This document shows positions 29,067 through 61,177 of a DNA stretch of 64,000 nt, one piece after another. The stretch covers positions 1 to 64,000 of the forward strand of contig DVHE01000022.1 of assembly GCA_018712245.1 (NCBI GenBank). Direction: 5' to 3'. Numbering within the stretch: position 1 is the first letter of the stretch; the number at the start of each line of letters is the position of its first letter. A program made the position numbers and the translations under genes. Source of the stretch: Candidatus Avoscillospira avicola. GTDB taxonomy: Bacteria; Bacillota; Clostridia; Oscillospirales; Oscillospiraceae. The notes under the pieces are model-generated. The model was not told where the DNA came from, ran no database searches, and saw nothing but the letters and a program-made list of their open reading frames with translations.

Positions 29067-29274
29067 TCCAGCGGGTCGAAAAAGTATTTTTGCCCCGCTG
29101 TCCCCTGTTTTTGCAACTTTAAGAAAGTTGCAAAAACGACCTTATTGAACGAGCATGGCCCAGGCCAGCTTCTCTTGCCCTGCTGGCAATTCACCTTCGG
29201 GGGCCCTTTGCCCCCTGCACACATCCCCCGCTGCTCTGTTGCAACGGCTTTTATCATAGTTTTTTGACAGTCTC
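29067..29274 (-). repeat. Dispersed intergenic repeat, copy 1 (inverted relative to copy 2)
   Basis: Read on the minus strand it matches the + strand at 31146-31308: GACTGTC-AAAAACTATGATAAAA, CAACAGAGCAGCGGGGGATG, GCAGGGGGCAAAGGGCCCCC, TTCAATAAG, an internal hairpin TTTTTGCAACTTT..AAAGTTGCAAAAA, and CTTTTTCGAC-CGCTGG. Copy 1 carries about 40 extra bases in the centre. It has no ORF and looks like a MITE/REP-type element. Confidence 0.75.
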
Positions 29275-29336
29275 AGGCCGCGGCTTGACGCCGCGGCCCT
29301 TTGTTTGCTACAATAGCCCCAAAGGAGGGATGCCCC

Positions 29337-31120: not shown

Positions 31121-31332
31121 GGTGCTGCGCACCGCGCAGCCCCCGAGACTGTCGAAAAACTATGATAAAAACCTCCGCAACAGAGCAGCGGGGGATGGGC
31201 GCAGGGGGCAAAGGGCCCCCTGCGCGTTCAATAAGAGTGTTTTTGCAACTTTTATAAAGTTGCAAAAAACTAAGGCAGCGTGGCGAAAACACTTTTTCGA
31301 CACGCTGGGGTGCTGCGCACCGCGCAGCACCC
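31121..31332 (+). repeat. Dispersed intergenic repeat, copy 2, bracketed by GGTGCTGCGCACCGCGCAGC hairpins
   Basis: The core at 31146-31308 matches copy 1 in inverted orientation. Direct copies of a self-complementary 20-mer (GGTGCTGCGC-ACC-GCGCAGC) flank it at 31121-31140 and 31310-31329; the second folds perfectly (10 bp, loop ACC). The internal TTTTTGCAACTTT..AAAGTTGCAAAAA hairpin is also present. The layout suggests a small non-autonomous element. Confidence 0.75.
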
Positions 31333-31344
31333 TTTGGCGTTCGA

Positions 31345-55413: not shown

Positions 55414-55593
55414 GCCAACCGCTGCGGTCGCTGCATCCGCCACTGGCGGCGCTCCCTTGCGGGCCTCCCCTCCAGGGGAGGCTTGGGAAGGTGCGTTGGA
55501 TGGGGCGCGCAGAGCGAATAGGCTTACGGACGCGCGATGCGCGCCCCTACGAAAAGACAGGAAACAAACGTCAATCACGGCGAGGAGGAGAAC
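55414..55593. repeat. Gap with D1, B5 and C11 repeats
   Basis: D1 (55414-55465): GCCAACCGCTGCGGTCGCTGC..CACTGGCGGCGCTCCCTTGCGGGCC. B5 tail (55464-55487): CTCCCCTCCAGGGGAGGCTTGGG. C11 (55526-55551): GACGCGCGATGCGCGCCCCTAC. D is the same unit that splits an A repeat at 61050-61160. No gene. Confidence 0.8.
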
Positions 55594-59723: not shown

Positions 59724-59776
59724 ACAACCCCTCAGTCACGGCGAAGCCGTGACAGCTCCCCTTACACAGGGGAGCC
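59724..59776. repeat. Repeat family A, copy A8
   Basis: CAACCCCTCAGTCACGGCGAAGCCGTGACAGCTCCCCTTACACAGGGGAGCC, intact, between two genes of the lysis region. Confidence 0.85.
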
Positions 59777-59805
59777 TTTAGAGGGTGCGTGAAAGGAGCA
59801 TACAT

Positions 59806-60051
59806 ATGGAAATTCTGAAGAAGTTCAAGTCGAGGAAGCTGTGGGTGGCCGTCATCGGCGTGCTGATGGGCGTGGCCATGATTTTCGGCGTCGATCCCAA
59901 CGTGGCTGAGACCGTGAGCGGCGCTGTGGTGGCCGTGGTGTCGGTGGTGGCCTACATCGTCACCGAGGGCAAGATCGACGCCGCTGCCGTCGGAGACGCG
60001 GCGCAGAAGGTCCAGGACGCCGTGGATGCCGTGACCGGGCAGGAGGATTGA
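59806..60051 (+). CDS. Holin
   Basis: 81 aa. Basic N-terminus (MEILKKFKSRKLW) and two membrane helices (VAVIGVLMGVAMIFGV, ETVSGAVVAVVSVVAYIV), then a soluble tail. ATG 59806 after AAAGGAG; the track start 59785 is earlier. It lies directly before the endolysin gene, overlapping its upstream region, so together they form the lysis cassette. Confidence 0.85.
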   Translation: MEILKKFKSRKLWVAVIGVLMGVAMIFGVDPNVAETVSGAVVAVVSVVAYIVTEGKIDAAAVGDAAQKVQDAVDAVTGQED

Positions 60052-60974: not shown

Positions 60975-61020
60975 AAAACGGGCGCACGATGGCGCCATGC
61001 GGGGTGTGGGAGACTATGGA

Positions 61021-61177
61021 CAACCCCTCAGTCAGCCTGCGGCTGACAGAACCGGGTTGCCACTAAGCCTTCCCGTCCCGCGCTGCGGTCCGCCAAGGCA
61101 AGTGGCTGCCCAACCGCTGCGGTCGCTTACTCTGCCACTGGCAGCGCTCCCTTGCGGGCCCCTTACACAGGGGAGCC
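61021..61177. repeat. Family A repeat (A9) split by a second repeat element
   Basis: The left half of A (CAACCCCTCAGTCAGCCTGCGGCTGACAG, 61021-61049) and right half (CCTTACACAGGGGAGCC, 61161-61177) are separated by a 111-bp insert (61050-61160). The insert's second half (CAACCGCTGCGGTCGC..CTTGCGGGCC) matches D1 at 55414-55465. This is a nested insertion: D-type sequence landed inside an A copy, or recombined there. The track ORF starting here is repeat translation. Confidence 0.8.

What the first reader, a model, noticed from the sequence alone, without database searches (positions are those of the whole stretch)
61021..61177. Nested insertion: a D element inside a family A repeat
A9 is cut after CTGACAG and resumes at CCTTACAC, with 111 bp between them; the second half of the insert matches D1 at 55414-55465 at about 90%. 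D1 itself borders a B-type tail. This shows one repeat class has inserted into another, giving a relative age.
Basis: seen in the sequence. Interest (0 to 1): 0.6.

Follow-up and report, generated by a model that had tools for sequence, protein, structure and literature searches.

The report
Small hairpin element inserted in another
A 109-base, two-hairpin mobile repeat found only in one genus of gut bacteria has jumped into an older and more widespread hairpin repeat in a prophage; a related genome still carries a copy of the older repeat uninterrupted at another matching site, which fixes the order of events.

Summary
Confirmed and extended. The A repeat at 61020-61177 is split by a foreign block, and the whole block (61052-61160) is D, not only its second half. 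D is a 109-bp unit folding into two hairpins with compensatory changes. The genome has about 30 full copies and 12 fragments. Relatives in the genus carry 0-18, and no full copy was found in about 149 other genomes of the family, whereas A occurs in 37 of 151. D's ends hardly vary (CCGGGTTG...GGGCC), but its hosts do: A, a related family B, the loop of a GTAG-type REP (C), and other sites. It is therefore not a fixed A-D fusion. At one syntenic locus, G007 has the A uninterrupted (CAGCTCCCTTTACAC) where the own genome has CAGCTCC-[D]-CCCTTTGCAC: a clean 107-bp gain with CC at both ends. Window A9 has no direct empty site, because both related prophages lack A9 and differ beyond the lysin gene. 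D1 (55415-55465) is a truncated D-in-B copy. Best reading: a non-autonomous palindromic mobile element that inserts at C-rich spots beside or inside other palindromes, working like YPAL. Its mobiliser is unidentified. Some composites, notably C-D, then spread as units.

The parts
61020..61049 (+). 5' part of host repeat A9: leader and intact hairpin 1 (GTCAGCCTGCGGCTGAC)
   Evidence: Same 31-nt start as other A copies; hairpin in the DNA fold.
61052..61160 (+). D element, full length (109 bp counting the CC at both ends; net gain 107 bp)
   Evidence: About 30 full-length genome copies with the same ends; 18 matches in G006, fewer in G004, G005, G007, G002.
61052..61053 (+). Left CC of the apparent 2-bp CC repeat (core or duplication)
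   Evidence: CC is at both ends of nearly every full copy; the syntenic empty site in G007 has it once.
61055..61110 (+). D hairpin 1 (20 pairs, with bulges)
   Evidence: Consensus fold; 8 of its pairs have changes on both sides, 97.1% of cells paired.
61114..61157 (+). D hairpin 2 (long stem with inner CTGCC-ACT-GGCAG hairpin)
   Evidence: columns 64-106 change CG to UA and 83-93 CG to UA together. This half alone is the D1 fragment.
61159..61160 (+). Right CC of the apparent CC repeat
61161..61177 (+). 3' part of A9: rest of hairpin 2 (CCTTACACAGGGGAGCC)
   Evidence: Same 3' end as uninterrupted A copies. Predicted stem shortened from 8 to 5 pairs.
59726..59778 (+). Uninterrupted A copy (A8), for comparison
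   Evidence: Present in the related prophage G000:C81, absent at the same place in the G003:C28 prophage, so A itself is a gained element.
55415..55465 (+). D1: right hairpin of D only (5'-truncated copy)
   Evidence: Matches query positions 61-111 only.
55466..55482 (+). B-type hairpin 2 (TCCCCTCCAGGGGAGGC) following D1, the same kind of junction as full D-in-B copies such as L007 and L020

Best explanation
D is a small non-autonomous mobile element of 105-109 bp with two structurally conserved hairpins; nothing suggests that it codes for protein. It was inserted into a pre-existing A repeat between the lysin gene and the downstream tail-type gene of this prophage, splitting the 5' arm of A's second hairpin. 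It inserts at C-rich sites (mostly a pyrimidine followed by CC) at the foot or in the loop of other palindromic repeats, leaving CC at both ends. Shown: independent element, fixed ends, several host families, one syntenic uninterrupted host, conserved structure, genus-restricted range. Inferred: a transposase acting in trans moves it, most likely one working on hairpin or single-stranded DNA (HUH/Y1 type, the only candidate class found in every genome). Some composites, above all D in the C loop, then multiply as units, and others recombine and truncate, as in D1.
For: Copies and ends. Syntenic locus C56:38164: G007 has an uninterrupted A in the same B-A context (88% identity through both flanks), G000 has it with D, G003 and G006 have no B-A block at all. 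Several hosts and insertion points: A CAGCT^CC, B CACCT^CC and GCCA^CC, C loop GATGGT^CC^ACATC, and different sites in G004, G005, G002. Structure: 10 of 33 pairs change on both sides, 97.8% of cells paired, covariation score reached in 0 of 500 shuffles. Range: for D against for A. Composite spread: every C-D copy reads GATGGT or GATAGT before D, a loop absent from the listed uninterrupted C copies (117 pattern matches, about 100 listed). Y1 transposases in all 8 genomes, some RAYT-like and flanked by C palindromes.
Against: No mobiliser is tied to D and no longer element sharing its ends was found. D has no visible terminal inverted repeat. The CC repeat is too short to separate a target duplication from chance or a recombination core. 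Only one syntenic filled/uninterrupted pair was found, and the A hairpin-1 core there also differs between species, so some exchange touched the repeat. The D tree is too weakly supported to count independent insertions. Assemblies are incomplete (84% for the window's).
Confidence: 0.85

Rival explanations
1. A-D is an old stable composite repeat, and copies of A without D are deletion products.
For: Within each host family the junction is nearly constant, so the composites themselves have multiplied.
Against: D has the same ends in B, in the C loop and in unrelated contexts. A is far more widespread than D. The G007 site has no D remnant.
Confidence: 0.05
2. D reaches new hosts mainly by homologous or microhomology recombination and gene conversion among repeats, not by transposition.
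For: Mosaics exist: B half + D + C hairpin joined at GGGCC (L003), B half + D + A half (L004), D hairpin 1 joined to a C stem (L033). Hairpin-1 cores differ between orthologous A copies.
Against: Recombination does not easily explain identical D ends in hosts with no shared flanking sequence (C loop; G004, G005, G002 sites).
Confidence: 0.2
3. D is moved by a site-specific recombinase with a 2-bp CC core (IS110 or IS607 type), some of which are known to target REPs.
For: CC at both ends; IS110 members insert in REPs at fixed points (PMC1525189).
Against: No IS607 match over cut-off in 8 genomes, and only one partial IS110-like fragment (98.5 bits against a cut-off of 140), in G006. D is too short for a bridge RNA (own knowledge).
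Confidence: 0.12

Closest known systems
YPAL / RU-2 of Yersinia (about 168 bp palindromic mobile repeat)
   Same: Internal rather than terminal inverted repeats, not A+T-rich, intergenic, targets span or adjoin dyad symmetries, filled and empty sites known (PMC2229807).
   Different: D is 105-109 bp with two hairpins; at most a 2-bp CC at both ends against 3-26 bp duplications in YPAL; different bacterial phylum; relationship by sequence not tested.
REP elements with RAYT (TnpA-REP), GTAG family
   Same: Small structured, high-copy, non-autonomous repeats; Y1 enzymes present; the C host family here is GTAG-tagged and flanks RAYT-like genes.
   Different: D has no GTAG or CGTC tag and is 3-4 times longer; no link between D and a RAYT was found.
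Insertion sequences that target REPs (IS1397, IS621, ISPpu9 and others)
   Same: Insertion at fixed points of palindromic repeats (PMC1525189).
   Different: D is a 109-bp repeat without a transposase gene, not an IS, and enters several host families.
MITEs such as RUP (107 bp) and Correia/NEMIS
   Same: Size class, copy number, non-autonomous.
   Different: No terminal inverted repeats and no TA duplication.

Membership tests
GTAG/CGTC REP element | GTAG or CGTC tag at one end of a 20-40 bp palindrome | tested here: not met
   D ends are CCGGGTTG and GCGGGCC; 109 bp with two hairpins. Definition from PMC3733652.
GTAG/CGTC REP element | High copy number in intergenic DNA | tested here: met
   42 matches in the window's genome; the window copies lie between genes.
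MITE (TIR/TSD type) | Terminal inverted repeats | tested here: not met
   Left end CCGGGTTGCC against the reverse complement of the right end GGCCCGCAAG: no position agrees (read).
MITE (TIR/TSD type) | Target-site duplication of fixed length | tested here: inconclusive
   CC at both ends of nearly all full copies and once at the uninterrupted site; too short to be decisive.
MITE (TIR/TSD type) | Autonomous partner with the same ends | tested here: inconclusive
   None appeared among the D matches in 8 genus genomes, which are incomplete MAGs.
YPAL-like palindromic element | Internal inverted repeats, not A+T-rich | tested here: met
   Two covarying hairpins; G+C-rich sequence.
YPAL-like palindromic element | Targets in or next to dyad symmetries, with empty sites | tested here: met
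   Insertion in the arm or loop of A, B, C; one syntenic uninterrupted host.
YPAL-like palindromic element | 3-26 bp target duplication | tested here: not met
   At most CC.
IS200/IS605-derived element (Y1-moved) | Conserved 4-5 nt target to the left of the element | tested here: not met
   Left flank before CC is only biased to T or C (30 T, 13 C, 3 A of 46).
IS110 / IS607-moved element | Recombinase present in genomes that carry D | tested here: inconclusive
   No match over cut-off in 8 genomes, but the assemblies are incomplete, so absence is not proven.

The most novel reading that the evidence does not exclude
D is a new kind of mobile repeat specialised on other palindromic repeats: it uses hairpin-forming repeats as landing pads, and once lodged in the loop of a GTAG REP the composite is copied as a unit by the REP's own transposase, so that D hitch-hikes on RAYT-driven spread.
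Probability: 0.25. Interest if true: 0.65.

Novelty: new member of a known kind. Interest (0 to 1): 0.4.

Why it matters
Small palindromic repeats are abundant in bacteria, but how they move is poorly shown. Here one genus offers filled, uninterrupted and wholly absent states of the same locus and a clear layering of elements. The ten C-D copies suggest that a REP palindrome can still multiply with a 110-base cargo in its loop, which would test what REP transposases need to recognise.

Tried and rejected
Direct empty site for A9: two related prophages (G000:C81, G003:C28) match up to the end of the lysin gene but lack A9 and D and have a different downstream gene. Viral contigs: no relatives of the lysin or downstream protein, and no D. 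Phage records: no match. Rfam: only two tRNAs in the window. IS607 and IS110 as mobilisers: not supported. Tree of D copies to count insertions: host labels are mixed but support is too low (13 changes against 24.6 shuffled; starred branches force only 1 for each group). Other D loci (C57, C68): the relatives lack the flanking repeat block or differ downstream, so no exact D-only empty site. Literature searches found no description of A, B or D. A first alignment of D copies had three copies on the wrong strand and was replaced.

Full report
What is there. The window lies in a 2.41-Mb, 84% complete genome. Other genomes that carry the left end of D are recorded as Candidatus Avoscillospira (MAGs) and unnamed Clostridia. 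The right half of the window is a prophage: terminase, portal, major head protein, collagen-repeat protein, GH25 endolysin. Between the lysin (ends 60974) and the next gene (61263) stands A repeat number 9. Its first part, 61020-61049, equals other A copies, and its last part, 61161-61177, is the usual A end. The block between them is D, 61052-61160, preceded by two extra bases (AA).

D as an element. D has 42 matches in the genome, about 30 of them full length. The ends are nearly constant: CCGGGTTG on the left, GCGGGCC on the right. In the genus, the number of matches runs from 0 (G001, G003) to 18 (G006) and 42 (own). In about 149 other genomes of the family the only match was one 46-base piece. 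D has two hairpins. On 26 diverse copies, 97.8% of cells pair, 10 of 33 pairs change on both sides, and the covariation score was reached in none of 500 shuffles and by none of the slid versions. The structure was derived from the same alignment, so the slid control leans in its favour. The fold of the single window copy is only mildly better than shuffles (z -2.2), so covariation is the stronger evidence.

Hosts. D sits in A (CAGCT^CC^CYTTACAC), in B at two points three bases apart (CACCT^CC and GCCA^CC), in the loop of the GTAG palindrome C (GATGGT^CC^ACATCGGCC), and at other places in G004, G005 and G002, several of them just before A- or B-like palindromes. A fixed A-D fusion is therefore excluded.

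Order of events. At G000:C56:38164 the flanks are syntenic in G007, G003 and G006. G003 and G006 have no B-A block. G007 has B-A with the A uninterrupted: CAGCTCCCTTTACACAAGGGAGCC. G000 has the same B-A with D inside: CAGCTCC-GGGTTG...GCGGG-CCCTTTGCACAAGGGAGCC. The gain is 107 bp, or 105 bp plus a second CC. By range too, A (37 of 151 family genomes) is broader than D. For A9 itself no such comparison exists, since the related prophages differ there. A8 at 59726 is shared with the C81 prophage and absent from the G003 one, so A is itself a gained element.

D1. The D piece at 55415-55465 is hairpin 2 only and runs into a B-type hairpin 2 with the same kind of junction as full D-in-B copies such as L007.

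Composites and mosaics. All C-D copies share GATGGT (one GATAGT) before D. None of the listed uninterrupted C copies has that loop. The simplest reading is one insertion followed by multiplication of the composite. L003, L004 and L033 are mosaics joined at short shared sequences. Interrupted and uninterrupted A copies share several hairpin-1 cores, so either D entered A more than once or these cores are exchanged.

Mechanism. Shown: insertion, ends, hosts, structure. Inferred: movement in trans. Y1 transposases are in all eight genomes (in G005 below the family's cut-off). RAYT-like ones score 71 and 60 bits against NCBI's REP transposase model (cut-off 80, so below it) and are flanked by C-type palindromes. 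IS607 and IS110 are not supported. The left flank of D is only biased to a pyrimidine before CC, weaker than the fixed target expected of IS200/IS605 (own knowledge), so the mobiliser stays open. The insertion shortens A9's second hairpin from 8 to 5 predicted pairs; any effect on the prophage transcript is untested.

Verdict. Observation confirmed, interpretation supported and generalised; an ordinary kind of event in an unusually clear setting, with an element for which no description was found.

Noticed in passing
L060:14560-15000 and L101:3793-4168: Hairpin-1 core of the orthologous A copy differs completely between G000 (ACGCTGCGCGT) and G007 (AGGCCTTCGGCCT) while the flanking repeat sequence is nearly identical; A copies in the genome carry many such interchangeable self-complementary cores.
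   Followed up: partly
L060:5093-5548 and L060:8106-8553: A longer repeat (about 300-450 bp) that matches dozens of places of the genome on both strands, i.e. a large palindromic family distinct from D.
   Followed up: no
L167:1134-1900; L160:900-2100: RAYT-like transposase genes flanked by GTAG-type palindromes (C family), as in known REP-RAYT units; the own-genome copy appears interrupted by a stop codon.
   Followed up: partly
window 59726-59830: A8 and its downstream flank are almost identical in the C81 prophage although coding DNA just upstream differs, which hints at recent recombination.
   Followed up: no
L062:5750-6700: Intergenic regions in this genus hold dense arrays of several palindromic repeat families in a row.
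   Followed up: no
window 29068-29277 and 31142-31335: Long imperfect inverted repeats (91 and 79 nt) about 2 kb apart around open reading frames, possibly an insertion sequence or invertible unit.
   Followed up: no
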